Assembly: GCF_000737535.1 (NCBI RefSeq)
Contig: NZ_CP006269.1
Location: 186,001-250,000, forward strand
Length of the DNA: 64,000 nt
Source: Synechococcus sp. KORDI-100
Lineage (GTDB): Bacteria > Cyanobacteriota > Cyanobacteriia > PCC-6307 > Cyanobiaceae
Direction: 5' to 3'
Below the pieces are notes generated by a model. It did not search any database. It saw only the letters and a program-made list of their open reading frames with translations, and was not told the DNA's origin. A program made the translations under genes and the position numbers. Shown here piece after piece: positions 4,141 through 42,438 of the stretch; positions within the stretch are counted from its first letter, which is position 1; the number at the start of each line of letters is the position of its first letter.

Positions 4141-4656
4141 TCAGGGTCCATTGAGATCAAATGGTGTGAGCAGTTTCACAACCAGCGGCAGCACAAGCAG
4201 CACCGTGATCAGGCGAACGGCGTGGAGGGCGGCGACGGCGGCGCCGACGCCGAATTCCGCTCCCACCAAGCTCATTCCACTGATTCCACCCGGGGCAGCA
4301 CCCAACAAGGCCACGACAGGATCAATCCCAAGCAGTCTGCTGCTCCACAATCCGATGACAACGCCCGTGAGCACGAGGGTGAGGGTGATCAGCAGTGCCG
4401 GTCGCCAGAGGGCCTGGAGTTGATCCAGAGAAGCCCGTGTCAGCCCCGTTCCAATCACGGTTCCGATGCCGATTTCCAGAACGGTTCGTGTGCCGCTCGG
4501 CCATTGGGCGAGTTCCATCTTTCCACTCATGCTCACCAATCCGGCTCCAAGCAGGGCTCCGGCCAGCGGAGCTGCGGGGATTCCACTCAGAAGTGCAAGC
4601 AGTCCAAGCGTTGTTCCTGCCAGGAGATAAAGAAGCAGAGTCGCCAGTGGGGGCAT
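4141..4656 (-). CDS. AbrB-family membrane protein, half-length
   Basis: A 171-residue, highly hydrophobic protein with about five membrane segments. The segment GAAPGGISGMSLVGAEFG at about 130-147 is typical of the AbrB/ammonia-monooxygenase-like transporter family (PF05145). Most family members carry two copies of this unit in about 350 residues; this one has only one, so it would have to pair with itself. Single-unit versions are known in cyanobacteria. Substrate unknown. It is not the transcription factor AbrB. Confidence 0.75.
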   Translation of the reverse strand: MPPLATLLLYLLAGTTLGLLALLSGIPAAPLAGALLGAGLVSMSGKMELAQWPSGTRTVLEIGIGTVIGTGLTRASLDQLQALWRPALLITLTLVLTGVVIGLWSSRLLGIDPVVALLGAAPGGISGMSLVGAEFGVGAAVAALHAVRLITVLLVLPLVVKLLTPFDLNGP

Positions 4657-31337: not shown

Positions 31338-32378
31338 GCGCTTCCATAGGTTCAGCAACTGTTGGGAGATTGAGGTGGCCGAGCGATCCTGTTCGGTCGC
31401 CTCGAGATCTGGTGTTTCGCTTTGGTCACTGCCGGAGACTGCGCTGATCTTCACGCGCATCAAGTAGTCCCCCAGAACCTCCATCGGATCTGGCTCTGGC
31501 TCTGGCTCTGGCTCTGGTGAAGGCGTGGGTGTGGGTTCTGGTTCGGCAACCGGCATTGGCTTTGGTGTTGGCTCTGGCTCCGGTGAATGAGTGGGTGTGG
31601 GTTCTGGTTCGGGAGATGGCGCCTGAGTCGGCGTAGGTGATGGGGGTAGTTGCGGCTCAGCGGATTCATCGTGCTGAGGTGGGCCTTCAGCTTGATCTGA
31701 GGCTTCAGACGCAATTTCCGGTGAGGGCTCCGGCTCGTTCTTGATCTCTTTCGGCAGATCAGTTGTCGACTCTGTTGGCGAAGCAGATGCTGCTTGTTGT
31801 GGCGTTGTCGTTTGATCGCTGTCTTCGGTTGTCGCCAAGTCCTCCAGCCAGGGCATGGCGCTGGAACCCGCGGGGGTGCTATCGGCTGCGCTTGTCGGGA
31901 TTTCCTGCAGAAAGGGATCCCTGAGCAGATCAGGCAATGGCCGGCTTTGAGTCGGGATGTTTTGAGTTAGTGCTGCTGGCTCTGGGGACGGCTGTTGATG
32001 CGTTGCCGGTTCTGGCGATCCAGCCCTGGTTTCTGGTGGTAATGGTGTTGGCGTGATCGCTGTCGCCCTTGGTTGCCTTGCCCAGGCCAGTCCCTGCTGT
32101 GCCAGTTCGGCCAGGGTGTCGTGGGGCTGACTGTCGAGCACCAGTTGAAAGTGGCGGGCTGCTGTGTCGGACTGGCCAAGTCCATGCAATTCGATGTTGC
32201 CCAGCAGCAGGGCGACAAAAGCCCTCCAGCCGATTACAGCTGCTTGCGTTTCTGCATCCGAAGGCGCGTTCTCGAGCTCGGTCAGCAGATCAGTGGCGAT
32301 CCCGCGGGCATCGTCGTAGCGCGCTTCGGAGAAGGCGTGCTCGGCGTCCTGATAGCGCTGTTGGAATTCGCCGTCCAC
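31323..32378 (-). CDS. TPR-like protein with long Pro-Glu-Thr repeat region
   Basis: 351 residues from GTG 32378; longer forms would run into lysC. The N-terminal 110 residues are helical with a TPR-like pattern (YQDAEHAFSEARYDDARGIA, and WRAFVALLLGNIELHGLGQS). The rest is low-complexity: a Pro/Thr/Gln stretch, then acidic, then PEPEPTPT-type repeats (about 255-310). A short C-terminal piece, DPMEVLGDYLMRVKI, looks conserved. No signal peptide or membrane segment. Function unknown; a scaffold role is possible. It lies 35 bases after lysC. Confidence 0.7.
   Translation of the reverse strand: MDGEFQQRYQDAEHAFSEARYDDARGIATDLLTELENAPSDAETQAAVIGWRAFVALLLGNIELHGLGQSDTAARHFQLVLDSQPHDTLAELAQQGLAWARQPRATAITPTPLPPETRAGSPEPATHQQPSPEPAALTQNIPTQSRPLPDLLRDPFLQEIPTSAADSTPAGSSAMPWLEDLATTEDSDQTTTPQQAASASPTESTTDLPKEIKNEPEPSPEIASEASDQAEGPPQHDESAEPQLPPSPTPTQAPSPEPEPTPTHSPEPEPTPKPMPVAEPEPTPTPSPEPEPEPEPDPMEVLGDYLMRVKISAVSGSDQSETPDLEATEQDRSATSISQQLLNLWKRLNRR
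31489..31612. repeat. hexanucleotide run and 66-bp spaced repeat inside the Pro-Glu-rich gene
   Basis: Five TCTGGY units (31489-31518) encode Glu-Pro pairs. In addition a 43-bp stretch at 31504-31546 recurs at 31570-31612 with about 4 mismatches, including 22 identical bases (31525-31546 and 31591-31612). All units are multiples of 3, so copy changes keep the frame. Confidence 0.85.
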
Positions 32379-34310: not shown

Positions 34311-35285
34311 TCAGCCCAACAACCCATCGCGGAAGGCATCGCCAGGCAGCGCTCCGCGCTTCAAGCGGGCCTCCACCTCCAGCAAGCGCCCTAATAGGGA
34401 GAGGAAGCGTTTTGGAGGCCGACCCTGCAGTTGCTTGCGCATCACATAGATGCGCTTCGGGTTGCCGATGCCGGCCGCTTTGGCGATCACCGCCACATCC
34501 CGCTCCCCTTGCTGTTCGAGCAGGCTCACCCAGAGCCAGCCGCGGATCTGCCCCGTGAGAGTGGCCACGATGCGCAGGGCCGGCTCACCCGCTTCGATCA
34601 GGGCATCCCAGCGGGCGATGGCGTTACCGGGTTGGCCATCCAGCAGGGCCTCGCCCACCTGCAAGGCGTTGGTGGCCAGGCCGCCCACCAACTCCTCCAC
34701 CAGCTTCACGGACACCTGACCGTTGTTGTCAGCTCTCAGCGACAGCTTGCGCAGTTCCGATTCGAGGCGGGCACTGTCGTTGCCGATGGCGTCCACAAGA
34801 GCATCGATGGCATCAGGCTCGAGCGTCAGGCCAATGGCGATGGCCGTGCGTTCCACCAGTTGACGTTGACCGGCGCCGTCCCAGACAGCAGGCAGCACGA
34901 AACTCTGCTCGTGATCCAGCCCCTGTTTGATTCGTTTCTGCAGGGTTTTGGTGGTACGTAACCGGCCATCCGGTTTGGCTGCGTTGACCAGCACCAGATG
35001 GGTGTTGTCGGGGATCAACTCAACGGCCGCCTCCAACTGATCAGCCAGCTCTGCCGGGCAGCCATTGCAGAAGGGACTGCGCTGCAGCAGCACCAGGCGG
35101 TCACCGCCACCGAAGGGAGGTGTGCGGGCTTCCTCCAGTGCCTGAGACGCCTGCCCGCTCTCTGCACCATCAAGTCGGCTGAGGTTGATGCTGCTCCAGC
35201 TGGGATCGACAACCTGTTCGGTCAGACCATGCAGGGCTCGATCGCGCGCTGCCGCGTCATCTCCCCAGAACAGATGGATGGGCAT
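34311..35285 (-). CDS. holA: DNA polymerase III delta subunit
   Basis: The clamp-opening subunit of the clamp loader, 324 residues from ATG 35285. It starts MPIHLFWGDDAAARDRAL and keeps the usual three-domain length, with the AAA+-like core lacking a P-loop and a C-terminal collar (LKRGALPGDAFRDGLL). Upstream in-frame starts exist but extend into the protease gene end and are not needed. A decayed copy of the 5' end of this gene lies at 37549-37641, beyond the protease gene. Confidence 0.93.
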   Translation of the reverse strand: MPIHLFWGDDAAARDRALHGLTEQVVDPSWSSINLSRLDGAESGQASQALEEARTPPFGGGDRLVLLQRSPFCNGCPAELADQLEAAVELIPDNTHLVLVNAAKPDGRLRTTKTLQKRIKQGLDHEQSFVLPAVWDGAGQRQLVERTAIAIGLTLEPDAIDALVDAIGNDSARLESELRKLSLRADNNGQVSVKLVEELVGGLATNALQVGEALLDGQPGNAIARWDALIEAGEPALRIVATLTGQIRGWLWVSLLEQQGERDVAVIAKAAGIGNPKRIYVMRKQLQGRPPKRFLSLLGRLLEVEARLKRGALPGDAFRDGLLG

Positions 35286-35349
35286 CGCTTGATGATGGCA
35301 GCCATGGACAAGCCCCGTCGTGGCTGACAGGGCTGAGGGAAGGGATGGA

Positions 35350-37362
35350 TCAAGCCAGGAAGTCCTGGTTGCTCCAGAAGGAAGCGAGTTCGGCGTTTTG
35401 ATCGAGAGCATGGGCGCGGCGTACGGCACCCTCGGCGTTCACCAATCCGAAACCGTTGTTGTTATCGAAGCCGGCAGCTCCGAGGTCCATGGCGCTGCCG
35501 ATCATGATTTCGCGCAGTTCACCGCCATCGAGATCGCTGTTTTCACTCCACACCAGTGCAGCGACGCCCGCCAGGTTGGGATTGGCGCAGGACGTGCCTC
35601 CAAACGTGCGGATGCTTCCTCCACTGTTCAGGATCGAATCGCTGTTGGTGGGAGCAACAAGGGTGAGGTTTGAGCCGCGGTTGGAGTAAGGGGCCAGCCT
35701 GGTGCCGCCTGCATTGCGATGGCCGCTTTCGAACTCCCAGCTGGTGGCTTGGAGGGCACCGACGCTGGCGATGTGGTCAAAGCTGCTGCTTGCTTTGGCA
35801 ATACCGGAGACGCTGGTGAGGTAGTTCGGATCGGTGAGATTGCCCCCCGGGCCACCATTTCCAGCGGCAATGGAGAAGAAGCTGAAGTCGCCGCTGCTGT
35901 TGAACAAATCGTTCATTTCGCTTTCTGTGCCGCCGTTGGTCCACCAGGACTCCCCTTGCACGCCTCCCTGGAAGACCAGCTTCTGACCTGGGCTGCGGTT
36001 TGCGAATGCACCCGAGATGGCGTCCTGCAGTTCGACACCACCGGCATACACGTTGTATCCCCAGAGACCGGCATCGGGAGCAAGACCAGCCACTTCAGTG
36101 CCGTCGTGGGCGGCGGCCATGACGCTCATCGCCTGATGGCCGTGATCCTCCTGCCGGTTCAGGCTGTTGACAGCGGTTTGATAGGTCACATGAGCGAGAT
36201 CGCCATGGATATCAGGGATCCCGGTGCCGTTGGCATCGAATCCAGCGTCCAGGGACACCAGAACCACGTCGTCGGAGCCTGTGTTGAAACGCCAGGCGCC
36301 ATTGACATCCATCACCTGCGTGTTCCATTGATCGTTGCTGCGGGCGTCTTGATTGGGTGTGAGATCAATGGCGACGTCATCGAACTGCAACCGCTCCACC
36401 CCCTGCAGATACAGCTCATCGCCATTGTTCAAACCAAGCGAATCGAACACGGTGCCGCCGTAAAAGCTCTGTCTGCCAAGCTCGGATGCGGATAGAGTAT
36501 CGATGCTGCGGCGTCCATTGAAGAAGGACACATCGCTGCTGTCGATACCATCAAGGTGTAGCGTGTCGGTGCCACCACGGCCCTGGAAGATGCGTGCCGA
36601 TCCAAATGCAGATCCAAAATCCTGATAGGTGAAATCGTTGCTGGTTTCATCCCCCAGATGGTTGCTGCCGAACTGCATCGGCTTGATCACGGTGATGGTT
36701 TCCTCGAATGATTCGATCACCTTGCGTTGTTGTCCGCTGCCGGTGAATTGGGTCACAGAAACGGCGTATTGATCTCGCAGACTGCCACCGGAGACAGCAT
36801 TGATTTTTTCCTTGAGATCAACTAGCAGGGAGGATTGACTCCGATTGGTCGTTTGCGTGCCCAGATCGATGACGTCACCGGTTTCGAGATCCTTCGCTGT
36901 GATGCTCACCTTCACAGGGCCACCCTGGAGGTTGATGTCGTCATGACGTTCTCTCTGGATCGTTTGAAAGGGATTGCGCCTTGATGAGTGAAGATTGATT
37001 TTGAGTGCGCCGTTTTCAAACACTTCCGCAAGGCTGCCATCACCGGACGCGTCAAGTATTCTCCGTATCTTGACTGGTTTGAATTCTGTGAGTGCGCTGT
37101 TTTTGGCGAGGTCAAACCAATCCGGTTGGACCTTCTGGATTTCGAAATCAGTTGTCTGCTGGAGGATTGCTTCAGCAGACTGATTAAAGTTAAAGCGTTG
37201 GCCGATCGTCTTGCTAACAAGATCGATTGTTTGATCAGTTCCGATGCTGCCGTCCATCACCAGCATGGATGATTTTTTGCCGCTGCTATTTGAGATAAAC
37301 GAGTCTTGTTTTGCGCTGATTTTGTTCGTCGTGCGGAGCTTTTTCGAGAGTTGAAAAGCCAT
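35350..37362 (-). CDS. subtilisin-like (S8) serine protease with RTX-type segment
   Basis: 670 residues from ATG 37362. There is no N-terminal signal peptide; the start is polar. Residues about 255-340 contain a hemolysin/RTX-like stretch (FQGRGGTDTLHLDGIDSS, then ERLQFDDVAIDL), a pattern found in type I-secreted cyanobacterial proteins. The S8 catalytic domain follows: Asp in LVSLDAGFD, His in QEDHGHQAMSV and Ser in GGTSCANPNLAGVAALVW. The order, RTX part before protease, is unusual. Export by a type I system is inferred; no exporter is in the window. It could instead act inside. Confidence 0.85.
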   Translation of the reverse strand: MAFQLSKKLRTTNKISAKQDSFISNSSGKKSSMLVMDGSIGTDQTIDLVSKTIGQRFNFNQSAEAILQQTTDFEIQKVQPDWFDLAKNSALTEFKPVKIRRILDASGDGSLAEVFENGALKINLHSSRRNPFQTIQRERHDDINLQGGPVKVSITAKDLETGDVIDLGTQTTNRSQSSLLVDLKEKINAVSGGSLRDQYAVSVTQFTGSGQQRKVIESFEETITVIKPMQFGSNHLGDETSNDFTYQDFGSAFGSARIFQGRGGTDTLHLDGIDSSDVSFFNGRRSIDTLSASELGRQSFYGGTVFDSLGLNNGDELYLQGVERLQFDDVAIDLTPNQDARSNDQWNTQVMDVNGAWRFNTGSDDVVLVSLDAGFDANGTGIPDIHGDLAHVTYQTAVNSLNRQEDHGHQAMSVMAAAHDGTEVAGLAPDAGLWGYNVYAGGVELQDAISGAFANRSPGQKLVFQGGVQGESWWTNGGTESEMNDLFNSSGDFSFFSIAAGNGGPGGNLTDPNYLTSVSGIAKASSSFDHIASVGALQATSWEFESGHRNAGGTRLAPYSNRGSNLTLVAPTNSDSILNSGGSIRTFGGTSCANPNLAGVAALVWSENSDLDGGELREIMIGSAMDLGAAGFDNNNGFGLVNAEGAVRRAHALDQNAELASFWSNQDFLA

Positions 37363-37762
37363 GATTGTCTGAGGAGGTTGTGACCTCTTGGGTCGTGAAT
37401 CAACCCTCACCGTTTTCGTTCATGTCGTCAGTGATCTCATCCTGCTGCAACTGTGATCTTGCTCTCAATGGCCTGTGATCGAGCTCACAGCGATTCCTTT
37501 GTCGGGATCACCCTCCCGACCAACGGCGACTTGGGCCAGCTGCGTTTGCCAGTGCCGTCAACGCCTGAGACGCCTGTTCGGTCAGACCCTTTAGGGCCCG
37601 CTCGCCTCTGCTTCGTCATGACGACAGAACAGATCGATGGGTTCTGATGAAGTCTCGGAGGGATCAATCTGAGTGTCTAATCAGAGACTTTTATTTTTGA
37701 GGTTTAATATTCAAAAAAATATCGATAAAAATTGATCAGCTAAAAAGTTTTTTGTAAAATAT
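37363..37762. other. 400-bp gap before the low-GC insert
   Basis: The right half drops sharply to AT-rich sequence from about 37660, where the methyltransferase gene begins to approach. Around 37549-37641 it holds the broken holA copy. The first part (37363-37540) shows no gene or clear signal, though it must hold the protease promoter. Confidence 0.6.
37549..37641 (-). pseudogene. decayed partial copy of the 5' end of holA
   Basis: Compared with holA on the same strand, blocks match in order: CCTGAGACGCCTG (37564-37576; holA 35141-35153), CCTGTTCGGTCAGACC (37573-37588; holA 35213-35228), and CAGAACAGAT-GATGGG with one mismatch (37625-37641; holA 35266-35282). The first two blocks share CCTG, so 63 bases were lost between CCTG repeats. 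One further base is missing between blocks two and three, and the ATG is lost. The result cannot be translated as HolA. Confidence 0.85.
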
Positions 37763-38500
37763 TTGAGAGTCATGGCTTTCAATGTTGTATATTTCAGGTC
37801 CTTTTTAGAAACCACTATGGTTGTTCACAGACTGTCGTCAGGACGTCCATGGCTCCCGATCGAATCACTCACGATGGTAGCCAAACAGAGAACGGTTCTC
37901 TGGGAATCTATTTCCAGAGAATATTGGGAACAATCGGACCATGAAGCGAAGCAACTGGATGATATCTATAAGTCATTTTTACAGAGAGGATTAACCAGCG
38001 AATCCACTTTGAAGGTCCTAGATATCGGTGCAGGATTTGCGGGATACGATATTTTGCTTGCTCAAAAATATAAACATCTGAATCTCACAATTCTTGACGC
38101 AAGCGATGAAGATCAAGAATTCAAACTAGGTTTTCAGAAGGTCGCCGAAAAATATAATGACTTTAACGTTTTAGATTTTTTATTTTTGCAATCTCATATT
38201 CGTAAAGAACGCTATGAATTGATTGATTTTCGCGGTCTTGATATTCAGACTTGGGTTAAGCAAAGAGTCGCTCAATACGACGTCATTCAGTCATTATTTT
38301 CATGGTGTTTTCATTACCCTTATGACGTCTATCGAGATGCAGCTCAATTGCTTTTAAAGCCAGGCGGAATCCTTATTGTTGATTGTAGAAACACCGATGA
38401 TCAGCTTGATGCCATCAAGGAAAACTTTCAATATCTTGGAGATGTCCATGCAGCATGTATAACCAGTGATCGCGTTATTTTTCGTCAGCCAATGCCTTAA
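37763..38500 (+). CDS. SAM-dependent methyltransferase-like protein
   Basis: 245 residues. The SAM-binding motif I is LKVLDIGAGFAGYD at about 92-105, followed by the acidic strand end LTILDAS and the post-motif LLLKPGGILIVDCRN. Substrate unknown. Starts within the first 40 residues are uncertain (ATG 37772 or 37817 are options). Codon use is AT-rich, unlike the flanking core genes but like the neighbouring WcbI-type gene, toward which it converges with a 4-base overlap. This points to lateral gain as part of a surface-glycan locus. Confidence 0.75.
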   Translation: MRVMAFNVVYFRSFLETTMVVHRLSSGRPWLPIESLTMVAKQRTVLWESISREYWEQSDHEAKQLDDIYKSFLQRGLTSESTLKVLDIGAGFAGYDILLAQKYKHLNLTILDASDEDQEFKLGFQKVAEKYNDFNVLDFLFLQSHIRKERYELIDFRGLDIQTWVKQRVAQYDVIQSLFSWCFHYPYDVYRDAAQLLLKPGGILIVDCRNTDDQLDAIKENFQYLGDVHAACITSDRVIFRQPMP

Positions 38501-40782
38501 CGTTTTGTGTGTTGGGTGTAAATGGATTCCTGCTTTTGTACGACAGACCAGTGCTCTTGCATTGATGGACGTTTGTTGAGTGCTGGTTGAAACACCGGGT
38601 GTAAATCTTGTGGATAGATGATTAGCTTTGTATTTTTAGTCAGGCTCTTGTATTGGTCATGGATTGTTTTCCAAACGCCTGGTCCTGTAACCCAGAACAC
38701 ATCATTGGATATTCGATTAAGAATATTTTCGACGATTTGGTCAAGGACGATCCGAAAGAAAGGACGAAGATCATCGTCCGGTGTTGTGTAGCCGAATCCG
38801 TTCCATATTGACCAATGATTTTCAGGTATCTGTCTAGACTTTCCTGCAAGAAGACTTCTTCCGTCTCGAAATAATTGATTGTCGAGAAGTGGCTTTGGAT
38901 TGAAGGGTCGATATGGCCAATCAATATAAAGTGCGTGTGAATAGTGAGCTAAGTGGGCGACTCGAATCACATCGGCTTGCATTGCAGGTGGTCCACATTG
39001 GAGAAAAGCACTGACAACTTTTGTTCCAAAGTTGTTTTCAAGAAAGCCTGTGGCTGAACTGCAATTCAAGAGCTGATAATGACCTGTTTTATTCAGACAT
39101 GAGCTCCATTGCAAGTTAATTTTCTTGTTGATTAATGTGTGATAATGCTGTAGTTCTAAATCAGATTGTGCTTTTTTGCTCTTTGCGTAATACTGAAGCA
39201 CGTGCAATGCAGGAAGGCTTTTTGTGTTTGGATTTGATGTGCTGTTGCATGCTATTTTCTCCACAACTGTCAGCAGATGGCGATTTGCCTTTTTCGGTTT
39301 CTCACGCCTTAATAATTCCTCGCAGAGTTGGTCGTGGCCTTGCCAATATTTTGGCGATTGTGTTGTTAAAGCTTGACTTATTTGATAAACACGATTAAAC
39401 TTTTTTTGTTCTTTGAAGAGTTGAATGATTTCAAACAAGATGATTGGGCTTCCTGGGAATGTCCCTAATCGTTTGTTTGCCACTCGAATCGCTTTGAAGG
39501 GTTTACCCGAAATGTTGAGTGCACGAGGTTCGTAAATAGCGAACTTGGCGTCGTTTGTTTGTAAGGCGATTTGAGTTAATTCCTTAGCAAGAGTCCTGCA
39601 CTCTTTATGAAGACGAAAATGCGCGCAAACCTCGAATGCAGGAACGAGAAACATCACCCTTCCGTTTTTGATATTTTTTAGTCCCGTTTTGATAAGATGT
39701 CCTACTGTAGATGGGTCGTTTAAATGTTGAGAAGCTTGTAAAGCGAGGCAATGGGCTCGTAAATGGGTCGGTTCTTTTTCGATGATTTGTTGGGCTTGAT
39801 GGAGGCATTCTTTAAACTTTAATCTGCTGAAGAGTGACAAGGCTGTTTCAAGATTGCTAATTGGCCTGGAAACAGATTGTTTGCTTAGCCCTGCCTGACT
39901 TGCTAAAGTAAGATTAGAAAAAGAAAGGATATCGTCCTTTCTTTCAGCGTATGTTTGATAAAATTTGTGCACTATTTCATCCAGCGTAAATTGACGAAAT
40001 CGCTCGACGCCTGTTTTGTCATTGTCGATTCCTGAGAAGCTTTGAGTGCATCCAAATTGAAGATCCAGTTGTCGTTTTGTAAAGCTATGAATCGGCGCTC
40101 GGAGGAGATCGAGAGGTTCACTTATGTTTGCAATCGAAGGATTTTCTTTCGATTCGAGGTTGAGGTAGCTGCCAATTCGTTTGACGAGTTGATCTAAAAG
40201 ATATTTGCTCGGGTGATTAAACGTAAAAAATAATTGTTTATATTGTTGCTCACGTTCAATGATATCTGAGACGCTGATGTCGAGTTTCTTTTCGCGCTCT
40301 TTGAGCTCATTAAGCGATTCTACAGCAACGTTTTGGTAAACTTTTTTCCAGAGTGAATCGTCGAGGTAATTTTTTTTAGCTTCCTTTTGGCTGAGGCTAT
40401 TTGACCAGGCATCGATAATGATCGAGCTGTGATAATCGCCGAGGGGTCCTGTTAATGTTGGTTGTCCTCTCAGTCGTACATAACGCAAATCTGGAGTGTA
40501 ACCTCGGTAAAAAAGATTTGGGATGAGTACAAGTTTTTTGATTAGCGATTCTTTGAGATTTTTGGTGCGAATGGTCGAGCAGGGATATTGATCAGATATG
40601 AATTGGCTAATGAGAATATCGGCGGTTTCTAATTTGAAACGATATTCATCGGCATACTCGTCTTTGGCTAGATGAACAATGATTGGTTCTAGGCATTGAA
40701 CCTTGAAATTGGCTTCAAGAAGATGAATGAGAGGACGCGCTTGGCAGTTGGCAACGACGGCAATGGTCTGTTGACGTTGCAA
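38497..40782 (-). CDS. WcbI-like / TPR-like / glycosyltransferase fusion protein
   Basis: 761 residues from TTG 40782 (an in-frame TAA lies 21 bases further up; no ATG). Residues 1-210 resemble WcbI, a putative acetyltransferase of capsule clusters: VVANCQARPLIHLLE at the start. Residues about 300-520 are helical repeats of TPR type. The C-terminal 230 resemble an OCH1/DXD-sugar transferase: MQADVIRVAHLAHYSHALYIDW, then VFWVTGPGVW. The DXD site reads DWP, so catalysis is doubtful or altered. The gene is AT-rich. It probably builds or decorates a surface polysaccharide; that is inference. Confidence 0.7.
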   Translation of the reverse strand: MQRQQTIAVVANCQARPLIHLLEANFKVQCLEPIIVHLAKDEYADEYRFKLETADILISQFISDQYPCSTIRTKNLKESLIKKLVLIPNLFYRGYTPDLRYVRLRGQPTLTGPLGDYHSSIIIDAWSNSLSQKEAKKNYLDDSLWKKVYQNVAVESLNELKEREKKLDISVSDIIEREQQYKQLFFTFNHPSKYLLDQLVKRIGSYLNLESKENPSIANISEPLDLLRAPIHSFTKRQLDLQFGCTQSFSGIDNDKTGVERFRQFTLDEIVHKFYQTYAERKDDILSFSNLTLASQAGLSKQSVSRPISNLETALSLFSRLKFKECLHQAQQIIEKEPTHLRAHCLALQASQHLNDPSTVGHLIKTGLKNIKNGRVMFLVPAFEVCAHFRLHKECRTLAKELTQIALQTNDAKFAIYEPRALNISGKPFKAIRVANKRLGTFPGSPIILFEIIQLFKEQKKFNRVYQISQALTTQSPKYWQGHDQLCEELLRREKPKKANRHLLTVVEKIACNSTSNPNTKSLPALHVLQYYAKSKKAQSDLELQHYHTLINKKINLQWSSCLNKTGHYQLLNCSSATGFLENNFGTKVVSAFLQCGPPAMQADVIRVAHLAHYSHALYIDWPYRPFNPKPLLDNQLFRDGRSLLAGKSRQIPENHWSIWNGFGYTTPDDDLRPFFRIVLDQIVENILNRISNDVFWVTGPGVWKTIHDQYKSLTKNTKLIIYPQDLHPVFQPALNKRPSMQEHWSVVQKQESIYTQHTKR

Positions 40783-40831: not shown

Positions 40832-41455
40832 TTGGATCACCCGATTTTCCTGGAGAGCATCAGGCGGATTCGAGAACAGCTTGGCGAAACGGCTCTGAAT
40901 CCGCTGCAGCAAACAGTTTTGGAGCGACTCATCCATAGCAGTGGTGATTTGGGGATTGCTTCATTGCTCACCTTCAGCGAGGAAGCCTGCGAGTCTGGTG
41001 TTGCTGCTCTCGAGGCCGGTGCATCGATCCTCACAGACACGGCCATGGCGGCGGCGGCTGTTGTGCCAATGGCAAAACGGACGTTGCATACGACGGTGCA
41101 TACCCTCTTGGACTGGGCACCTGAGACGTCACCGTCTGGCTCCACCCGTTCTGCGTTGGGGATGAAGAGTGCCTGGTTTGAGTTGGCGACTCAAATGCCA
41201 GCGCCGGTGGTACTGATTGGCAGTGCGCCGACGGCTATGGATGTGCTTCTGGACCTGGTACGTGATGGTGCTACGTCTCCCAGCTTGATCATTGGCATGC
41301 CGGTTGGTTTTGTGGGGGTGGCTGAGAGCAAACAGCGATTAGCTGTCAGTGGCTTGCCTCAGATTCGCCTCGATGGAAGCCGTGGTGGTGCTGGCTTAGC
41401 TGCTTCAGTTGTGAATGCTCTGTTGCGTTCCTCTTTTCAAAGGCCAGAACTCTGA
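40832..41455 (+). CDS. cbiC: precorrin-8X/cobalt-precorrin-8 methylmutase
   Basis: Moves the C11 methyl to C12 in cobalamin synthesis, forming (hydrogeno)cobyrinate. 207 residues from TTG 40832. Family marks are the opening HPIFLESIRRIRE and the end segment GMPVGFVGVAESKQRL, plus the short GSRGGAGLAASVVNAL. It returns to normal GC content after the insert. Its 3' end overlaps tilS by 19 bases, tail to tail. Other cob genes are not adjacent; cbiD is in the left part of the window. Confidence 0.95.
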   Translation: MDHPIFLESIRRIREQLGETALNPLQQTVLERLIHSSGDLGIASLLTFSEEACESGVAALEAGASILTDTAMAAAAVVPMAKRTLHTTVHTLLDWAPETSPSGSTRSALGMKSAWFELATQMPAPVVLIGSAPTAMDVLLDLVRDGATSPSLIIGMPVGFVGVAESKQRLAVSGLPQIRLDGSRGGAGLAASVVNALLRSSFQRPEL

Positions 41456-42438
41456 CAACGAAGCCTGACGATTTTGTTGTCCCACTGCAGGATCCAATCC
41501 CCTGGAAGAGCCTTCGTCCCTGCGGCAGAACCAAAGCGGAGCCGATGGCTTAATTGGGCGATCAAGACTGCACTAGTTGTTGGTACACCACTTGTCTGGA
41601 TCCAGTGGTGAATCACGGCTTGTCGTGTTGCGTCTGATAACGAACTCAGGCGTCGTCGATCAAGACCATCGACCTCCGTCAACGTTTCCAGTGCGATGTC
41701 GGCCAGTTCGTTTTGGGTGTCCTGTACGTGGGACATCCGTTCAGCCATGTTGGCCATTCGACGACTGCTGCCTGGGTAAAGGTTCTCCAGTACAGGCAGA
41801 ACGTCTTTGCGAATGCGGTTGCGGGCGAAGGCGATGCTTTCATTACTGGGATCGAGCCAGATCGGTAGATCCAGTTCATTGCAGATTTCCCGGGTTTCCG
41901 TTCGGCTGAAACTCAGCATTGGACGCCTCAGTTGCGGTCCATCCGGATGGCTTCGGTCGAGAGGTCGCTTTGGGCGCAGACTGCCAAGACCGCTGAGATC
42001 ACACCCTCTAGCCATTTGCAGCATCACGGTTTCGGCGCGGTCGCTCGCTGTGTGACCCATCACCACATCACACTGATAAGAGATCGCTCGTTTCTGGAGC
42101 TCCTCGTATCGCCATTCGCGGGCTGCATTTTCACTGTGCTTTCTCCAGTCACTTGCTCTGCTGATGTCGATCGGATGCTGCTGGCTGTCGCACCACTCCT
42201 TCAATTGAGCTGCGATGGCAGCAGATCCGGTGTGCCAGGCGTGATCCCCATGCCAGACCAGCAGCTTCCAAAAATGCAGACGCTTCAGATCCTGCAGCAG
42301 GCCCAGCATGGCCATTGAGTCCTGTCCGCCGGATACGGCCACCAGCAACGTTGATCGTTTCGGCAATAGATCCGGCGCTGCCAGGAGAAAGCGATGGAGC
42401 CGATCGTGCCAAGGGGTCCAGGGTCGTTCCGTCGGCAC
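41437..42438 (-). CDS. tilS: tRNA(Ile)-lysidine synthase
   Basis: Converts the wobble C of tRNA-Ile(CAU) to lysidine using ATP and lysine, an essential decoding step. 333 residues. The PP-loop motif is AVSGGQDSMAMLGLL at about 33-47, with WHGDHAWHTGS and GHTASDRAETVML as further N-type ATPase marks. The C-terminal domain is short, as in cyanobacteria. Divergent from the ycf23-like gene. Confidence 0.96.
   Translation of the reverse strand: MPTERPWTPWHDRLHRFLLAAPDLLPKRSTLLVAVSGGQDSMAMLGLLQDLKRLHFWKLLVWHGDHAWHTGSAAIAAQLKEWCDSQQHPIDISRASDWRKHSENAAREWRYEELQKRAISYQCDVVMGHTASDRAETVMLQMARGCDLSGLGSLRPKRPLDRSHPDGPQLRRPMLSFSRTETREICNELDLPIWLDPSNESIAFARNRIRKDVLPVLENLYPGSSRRMANMAERMSHVQDTQNELADIALETLTEVDGLDRRRLSSLSDATRQAVIHHWIQTSGVPTTSAVLIAQLSHRLRFGSAAGTKALPGDWILQWDNKIVRLRCQSSGL

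What the first reader, a model, noticed from the sequence alone, without database searches (positions are those of the whole stretch)
37549..37641. Broken copy of the holA 5' end on the far side of the protease gene
Three blocks match holA in the same order and on the same strand, with a 63-base deletion between CCTG repeats, a 1-base shift and a lost start codon. The intact holA starts at 35285, so the protease gene (35350-37362) lies between two holA 5' ends. The remnant also sits just where the sequence turns AT-rich. This points to a past duplication or insertion that used holA, and gives a marker of how the protease gene or the low-GC insert arrived.
Basis: seen in the sequence. Interest (0 to 1): 0.6.

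Follow-up and report, generated by a model that had tools for sequence, protein, structure and literature searches.

The report
Scar of a protease gene insertion
Beside a protease gene in a marine cyanobacterium lies a decayed second copy of the start of a neighbouring DNA-replication gene, a scar most likely left when the protease gene was inserted; two related strains carry similar scars nearby, so it is a neat marker of how genes arrive rather than a working part.

Summary
Window 37563-37651 is a diverged copy of the holA 5' end (35140-35296): a 14-base block, a 63-base loss between CCTG repeats, a 1-base loss, and start codon CAT changed to TTC. Alignment score 70, against at most 35.5 in 2000 shuffles. 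None of 58 relatives searched, some incomplete, shows the block.

In 24 of 26 genus genomes with holA, holA and cbiC are divergent and 27-39 bases apart. The other two, this genome and sister G023, have the protease between them. The remnant is nearest to these two holA genes (66 of 79 sites each; next best 60), so it is native to the clade. G023 lacks the block but keeps a ~23-base copy of the holA/cbiC junction beyond its protease.

Best reading: the insertion duplicated the junction and the spare copy decayed. An AT-rich methyltransferase-like/WcbI pair and foreign-looking cbiC-tilS joined later, just beyond it. Nearby, G006 has a fresh 331-base version (98.5%) around another cargo, G018 an 80% one. 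The kind (homology-assisted illegitimate insertion) is known. Whether the scar dates from the protease or the AT-rich insert is not settled.

The parts
34311..35285 (-). intact holA (DNA polymerase III delta subunit)
   Evidence: Pfam PF06144 E 9.2e-16 and PF21694; 93% identical in G023
35140..35306 (.). left copy of the duplicated junction: holA 5' end, spacer CGCTTGATGATGGCAGCC and an ATG at the former cbiC start position
   Evidence: aligned with the remnant and with the G023 cbiC-side junction (query 35283-35305); extent beyond this not shown
35350..37362 (-). S8 (subtilase) peptidase gene, cargo inserted between holA and cbiC
   Evidence: Pfam PF00082 E 9.8e-16; 3 of 34 genus genomes, between holA and cbiC in G000 and G023; in G022 on a contig of other genes, no holA found in that genome
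37363..37492 (.). protease upstream region, last stretch colinear with G023
   Evidence: 23 of 130 sites differ from G023; blastn colinearity ends at 37492
37563..37651 (-). decayed copy of the holA 5' end (right copy of the junction), with 63-base and 1-base losses and no start codon
37652..37680 (.). possible continuation of the duplicated junction into the old cbiC start; weak
   Evidence: best match of 37641-37700 to the G023 junction reached by 64 of 500 shuffles, so not significant
37763..38500 (+). methyltransferase-like gene in the AT-rich segment
   Evidence: weak Pfam PF13847/PF13489, below gathering cutoffs; 2 of 34 genus genomes, in both next to a holA end
38497..40782 (-). WcbI-domain gene in the AT-rich segment
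   Evidence: Pfam PF18588 E 1.4e-40; best partial relatives (33-34%, C-terminal part) in G009, about 5 kb from holA, and in G022
40832..41455 (+). cbiC, foreign-looking: GC 0.564 against 0.630 in G023, not sister to the G023 copy
41437..42438 (-). tilS, foreign-looking: GC 0.566 against 0.629 in G023, not sister to the G023 copy (a long branch, place unsure)

Best explanation
The block is a dead copy of the boundary between two divergent core genes, holA and cbiC. Ancestrally they stand about 27 bases apart. In the common ancestor of this strain and G023 a segment with an S8 protease gene entered this boundary, and the boundary was duplicated: at least about 157 bases of holA 5' end and spacer stand on both sides of the cargo. 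One copy stayed with holA and remained functional; the other stayed on the cbiC side and decayed. In G023 the cbiC-side copy was cut back to a ~23-base junction, possibly by a deletion between short CATCG-like repeats (inferred). In this strain it kept about 89 bases. Later an AT-rich pair of genes and a foreign-looking cbiC-tilS block joined just beyond it. The likely process is homology-assisted illegitimate insertion, or a single crossover of a circle carrying cargo plus junction; no recombinase was found among the genes scanned. Duplication would let both genes keep their ends and probably their promoters, which may be why such insertions survive in so tight a junction (inferred). Shown: homology, clade origin, ancestral gene order, sole co-occurrence with the protease, the junction copy in G023. 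Inferred: timing with the protease, mechanism, selection.
For: Homology far above chance (0 of 2000 shuffles). Ancestral order: 24 of 26 genus genomes with holA have holA and cbiC matches 27 (23 genomes) or 39 (1) bases apart; the two exceptions have the protease there. Clade origin: remnant equals G000 and G023 holA at 66 of 79 sites each, next best of 27 is 60. Three-way pattern over 69 sites plus one gap: 55 all same, 9 remnant-only, 2 all different, 2 G000-only, 1 G023-only; so no sign of a recent copy of this strain's own holA, though few sites speak. Remnant-only changes (9-11 of 69) compare with G000-G023 distances of 0.44 at fourfold sites and 0.20 upstream of the protease, an age near the split. 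Loss of constraint: against G000 holA the remnant differs at 4, 2 and 7 sites of codon positions 1, 2, 3, G023 at 0, 0 and 6. Junction duplicated in G023 too: 0 of 5000 shuffles and 0 of 438 locus tiles reach the score against the G000 left junction. Worked parallel: G006 has a 331-base, 98.5% direct repeat of its lysC 5'/holA 3' junction around a 2.1-kb cargo, while relative G015 has the empty site. G018 has a 99-base, 80% repeat of a gene's 3' end around a weakly sulfotransferase-like gene.
Against: G023 lacks the holA part of the right copy, so a separate deletion must be assumed. Colinearity with G023 stops at 37492, just before the remnant, as would also be expected if the remnant came with the later AT-rich/cbiC-tilS segment. 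With the G023 left junction as query the short junction match is weaker (6 of 5000 shuffles, 4 of 438 tiles). Bases 37493-37562 match no part of holA, lysC, cbiC or protease better than shuffles allow and nothing in 33 other genus genomes, so the left edge of the duplication is unknown. The third-position excess in the remnant (7 of 13 differences) is compatible with neutral decay but also with a partly functional, donor history. In a 400-kb sample each of G000 and G006 I recognised no other such scar, and five other strains' insertions in the same cluster show none.
Confidence: 0.6

Rival explanations
1. The remnant came with the later DNA: a donor of the same clade had holA, then the AT-rich genes, then its cbiC-tilS. 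On transfer its right side joined by homology and its left side joined illegitimately behind the protease, leaving a stub of the donor's holA end.
For: Explains at once why colinearity with G023 ends at 37492, just before the stub, and why G023 has none. cbiC and tilS here are foreign-looking: GC 0.56 against 0.63, not sister to G023. The remnant is equally far from both holA genes.
Against: The stub is of G000/G023 type while cbiC is not, so the donor must be a mosaic. The junction copy beyond the G023 protease suggests that the protease event itself involved a junction duplication. A base shared by the G000 and G023 right copies (GTC, where both left copies have GGC) weakly favours one shared right copy.
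Confidence: 0.25
2. A later local duplication of the holA end in this strain only, unconnected with either cargo.
For: The block is seen only here.
Against: The remnant shares no excess of this strain's own states: 1 site with G000 only against 2 with G023 only (few sites). It lies between the two cargo segments.
Confidence: 0.1
3. A site-specific element that integrates at the end of holA and restores it, leaving an attachment remnant.
For: Restored gene ends on the far side of cargo are typical of such elements (recalled).
Against: No integrase or transposase family among 3 cargo genes here and 8 in relatives (4 of the 8 hit no Pfam family at all). No tRNA nearer than about 14 kb in the window, none in L096 or L097. 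The duplicated parts differ in place and length among strains. The cargo methyltransferase has no match in 50,697 phage records or in the viral contig scan, which reaches close relatives only.
Confidence: 0.03
4. Chance similarity.
For: None.
Against: 0 of 2000 shuffles; E 1.4e-10 over the whole genome.
Confidence: 0.005

Closest known systems
Homology-facilitated illegitimate recombination (reported for Acinetobacter, Streptococcus pneumoniae, Pseudomonas stutzeri; seen here through passages of PMC2884548 and PMC5361080)
   Same: Foreign genes enter next to a homologous anchor and are joined without homology at the other end; small cargo, no recombinase needed.
   Different: Here both cargo sides carry the same core junction and one copy has decayed. 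The mechanism is inferred from structure, not seen in an experiment.
Displaced effector and immunity gene remnants in Vibrio cholerae T6SS clusters (PMC5361080, passages read)
   Same: Incoming module inserts at a fixed place and leaves remnants of the old genes beyond it; the authors propose the same recombination.
   Different: There the remnants are of the displaced variable module; here of a core gene that stays intact on the other side.
Small variable segments of bacterial genomes (PMC2884548, passages read)
   Same: Small insertions between core genes, of which 10-18% are flanked by direct repeats, a large share ascribed to illegitimate recombination.
   Different: According to the passages read most of those repeats are under 30 bases; the G006 repeat here is 331 bases.
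Genomic islands of marine Synechococcus (PMC7522525, passages read)
   Same: Lineage-specific gained genes in the same group of organisms.
   Different: That paper defines islands by 10-kb windows; the insertions here are mostly one to three genes.

Membership tests
Scar of homology-assisted illegitimate insertion | Cargo absent from the empty site in relatives | tested here: met
   24 of 26 genus genomes with holA have it directly beside cbiC
Scar of homology-assisted illegitimate insertion | Resident sequence next to the cargo as homology anchor, duplicated or broken on the far side | tested here: met
Scar of homology-assisted illegitimate insertion | Non-homologous joint with at most a few bases of identity at the other end | tested here: inconclusive
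   left edge of the duplication lies in or before 37493-37562, which matches nothing
Scar of homology-assisted illegitimate insertion | Formed during DNA uptake in a recA-proficient cell | not testable with these tools
   needs an experiment
Site-specific integrative element | Integrase or transposase in the cargo | tested here: not met
   none among 3 cargo genes here or 8 of relatives, 4 of which hit no family; short open frames not scanned
Site-specific integrative element | One fixed attachment sequence | tested here: not met
   duplicated stretch is holA/cbiC here, lysC/holA in G006, the 3' end of a gene beside rnj in G018
Transposon with target duplication | Short target duplication of fixed length | tested here: not met
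   at least about 157 bases here, 331 in G006
Transposon with target duplication | Terminal inverted repeats of the cargo | tested here: not met
   none of 14 bases or more joins the two cargo ends in 35280-37680 (5 pairs, all with an arm inside the gene) or in L097 4900-7200 (0 pairs); shorter ones were not sought
holA pseudogene | Frame and start codon lost, conserved residues changed | tested here: met
   MPIHLFWGDD reads EPIDLFCRHD in the remnant; H4, W7, G8, D9 are invariant in 8 holA proteins

The most novel reading that the evidence does not exclude
Marine Synechococcus gains small surface-sugar-type genes (methyltransferases, sulfotransferases, WcbI) and a protease at a recurrent set of tight core-gene junctions around lysC-holA-cbiC-tilS, by an unrecognised recombinase-free route that duplicates 100-330 bases of the junction. 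The spare junction copy then serves as a landing pad for further incoming DNA from strains with other cargo.
Probability: 0.15. Interest if true: 0.6.

Novelty: new member of a known kind. Interest (0 to 1): 0.38.

Why it matters
Such scars record the direction, site and approximate age of a gene gain, which single-gene gains often do not. Three scars of different freshness at one core-gene cluster in one genus (98.5%, 80% and 80% identity) would allow the joining step to be read from sequence, and suggest that duplication of the junction is what lets some insertions between closely packed core genes survive.

Tried and rejected
Chance match: rejected. Remnant present in relatives without the protease: not found in 58 relatives, of which 33 are of the genus and 8 of these 33, all under 90% complete, show no holA either. 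The only hits outside this genome were the intact holA of G023 and 28 bases in G004 inside an unrelated open frame, taken as chance. Phage or virus as carrier: no match of the methyltransferase in phages, none in viral contigs, and no holA relative in viral contigs; the viral scans reach close relatives only. Origin of 37493-37562: no match to holA, lysC, cbiC or protease better than shuffles allow, none in the genus. Decayed junction copies at the other small insertions (G009, G031, G008, G027, G012): none better than shuffles; the G009 insertion beside rnj was covered only by the self-comparison. A 269-base repeat in G021 turned out to be an internal duplication of one glycosyltransferase-type gene. 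Promoter scan of the holA 5' end: no sigma-70-type site, so the promoter-keeping idea has no direct support. Self-comparison of 28 loci also listed short repeats inside lysC in many of them, which I set aside. Background sample: of 27 direct-repeat rows in 400 kb of G000 and 3 in 400 kb of G006, most are repeats inside one gene or pairs of similar genes; L188 and L192 look like terminator hairpins; the cluster in L185 (17115-18402) and the pair in L207 were not resolved. That the cluster is a hotspot was not tested against other core clusters.

Full report
Setting. The window lies at 186001-250000 of a 2,789,000-base single-contig genome, G000. Relatives fetched by name are mostly marine Synechococcus, Cyanobium and Prochlorococcus. 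From genome lengths I recall G000 as Synechococcus KORDI-100, G006 (2,234,828) as CC9902, G021 as KORDI-52, G026 as KORDI-49 and G029 as CC9605. These names come from memory, not from a call.

The observation. Bases 37563-37651 copy the 5' end of holA on the same strand. The best local alignment scores 70 against at most 35.5 in 2000 dinucleotide shuffles. Within the whole genome the block finds only itself and holA, and within the window it is the only repeat found at E 0.01 besides one in-gene tandem repeat. The described damage is exact: 63 bases lost between two CCTG copies (35154-35216), 1 base lost, start codon CAT read as TTC. The 14-base left block has no equal in 2000 shuffles. The stated first 14 bases, 37549-37562, are not significant. 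The start MPIHLFWGDD reads EPIDLFCRHD; H4, W7, G8 and D9 are invariant in 8 holA proteins, so it is a dead copy.

Ancestral state. Of 34 genus genomes, 26 have a holA match. In 24 of these 26, holA and cbiC are divergent with 27 (23 genomes) or 39 (one) bases between the matches; in G000 and G023 an S8 peptidase gene stands between. The peptidase occurs in 3 of 34 genus genomes: 84% identical in G023 at the same place, 50-53% in G022 on a contig of other genes. lysC and holA of G000 and G023 are 94% and 93% identical and the two strains are sister in the lysC tree. DNA is colinear at 86% over 1-37492 apart from one variable stretch near 21 kb, and stops there.

Whose holA is it? Over 79 aligned sites the remnant agrees with G000 and G023 holA at 66 each; the best of the other 25 agrees at 60. 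It has motifs seen only in this pair among the 27 aligned, such as CCTGTTCGGTCAGACC and CAGAACAG. It is therefore native to the clade. Three-way site patterns (1 site shared with G000 only, 2 with G023 only, 9 unique, 2 all different) put its origin near the split of the two strains but cannot say before or after. Fourfold sites between the strains give a distance of 0.44, the protease upstream region 0.20; half of each, 0.22 and 0.10 per lineage, brackets the remnant's own divergence of about 0.15.

The other side in G023. G023 has no holA remnant between protease and cbiC. The stretch before its cbiC repeats the 23 bases at and after the holA start in G000: CATCG-TTGATGATGTCAGTCAT against CATCGCTTGATGATGGCAGCCAT, 0 of 5000 shuffles and 0 of 438 tiles as good; with the G023 left junction as query the support is weaker, 6 of 5000 and 4 of 438. 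So at least part of the holA/cbiC junction flanks the protease on both sides in both strains. This ties the duplication to the protease and is my main reason for preferring that reading. A single base, GTC in both right copies against GGC in both left ones, agrees. Against it: the break in colinearity at 37492 sits just before the remnant, as expected if the remnant came with the next segment.

The next segment. Beyond about 37670 GC drops to 0.38. It holds a methyltransferase-like gene (Pfam support below cutoff) and a WcbI-domain gene. Beyond it cbiC and tilS have GC 0.56 against 0.63 in G023 and are not sister to the G023 copies, while DUF561 is near normal; the tilS branch is long and its place unsure. 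So a second event brought the AT-rich genes and probably a foreign cbiC-tilS.

Parallels at the same cluster. G006 has a 331-base direct repeat, 98.5% identical, of its own lysC 5'/holA 3' junction around a 2.1-kb cargo whose main open frame, 401 aa, has no match in the other 33 genus genomes; its relative G015 has the two genes adjacent. Both copies still encode nearly the same C-terminus (PMGLINRIKR), as if one came from another strain. In all, 3 of 28 loci examined by self-comparison show cargo between two copies of a gene end. Insertions in five other strains have no such trace: G009, G031, G008, G027, G012. The methyltransferase family of the window occurs in 2 of 34 genus genomes, in both next to a holA end: here behind the remnant, in G009 between lysC and the 3' end of holA. 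The best genus relative of the WcbI gene, partial, lies about 5 kb from holA in G009. In G027 and G012, which share a cassette with sulfotransferase-type genes, cbiC and tilS group together but lysC does not, so cargo there probably moved with flanking core genes.

Background. In 400 kb each of G000 and G006 I recognised no other scar of this form among 27 and 3 direct-repeat rows, two sets unresolved. The sample is small, and the cluster studied was chosen because it has one.

Mechanism. No integrase or transposase family was found among 11 cargo genes scanned, 4 of which hit no family; no tRNA is near, no fixed site exists and no inverted repeats of 14 bases or more join the cargo ends. Incoming DNA that pairs with the core junction on one side and is joined illegitimately on the other, or a circle with cargo plus junction that integrates by one crossover, could leave this picture. 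The first is proposed for Vibrio gene arrays (PMC5361080, passages) and for small variable segments (PMC2884548, passages), both of which cite its demonstration in three transformable species; duplications arising through transformation are shown in pneumococcus (PMC3784515, passages). The primary papers on homology-facilitated illegitimate recombination I saw only as references. That a duplicated junction preserves both gene ends and promoters is my inference; a simple promoter scan found nothing in the holA 5' end.

Print status. The listings of searches for this locus or such scars in marine Synechococcus (in one search only 10 of 20 and only 12 of 128 papers were listed) showed no title or abstract start on it; the library holds open-licence papers only, so this is weak evidence of absence. 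The kind of event is known. The case is a new member, made somewhat more interesting by the fresh G006 example and the shared cargo at one cluster.

Noticed in passing
window 37474-37489: TGTGATCGAGCTCACA, a perfect match to the CRP-type palindrome (consensus recalled), upstream of the protease; conserved in G023 as TGTGATCGCGCTCACA (L096 9180-9195). The window has 2 matches where 0.09 are expected. The protease may be cAMP/CRP-controlled.
   Followed up: partly
window 4165-4180: The second perfect CRP-type palindrome in the window.
   Followed up: no
L097 4640-4969 and 7093-7423: G006: 331-base direct repeat of the lysC/holA junction around a 401-aa open frame without Pfam match; likely a recent insertion.
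   Followed up: yes
L114 (G027) and L121 (G012), between cbiC and tilS: Shared cassette with sulfotransferase-type genes (Pfam-scanned in G027 only); cbiC and tilS of the two group together although lysC does not, so the cassette probably moved with flanking core genes.
   Followed up: partly
L218 4915-7794 (G021): A 959-aa glycosyltransferase-type gene made of a 1.3-kb tandem duplication, 97.8% identical.
   Followed up: no
L122 7484-8222 (G008): About 740 AT-rich bases without a long open frame between lysC and holA, perhaps a decayed insertion.
   Followed up: no
window 31491-31612: In-gene tandem repeat (56 bases, 87.5%) in the poorly conserved gene after lysC.
   Followed up: no
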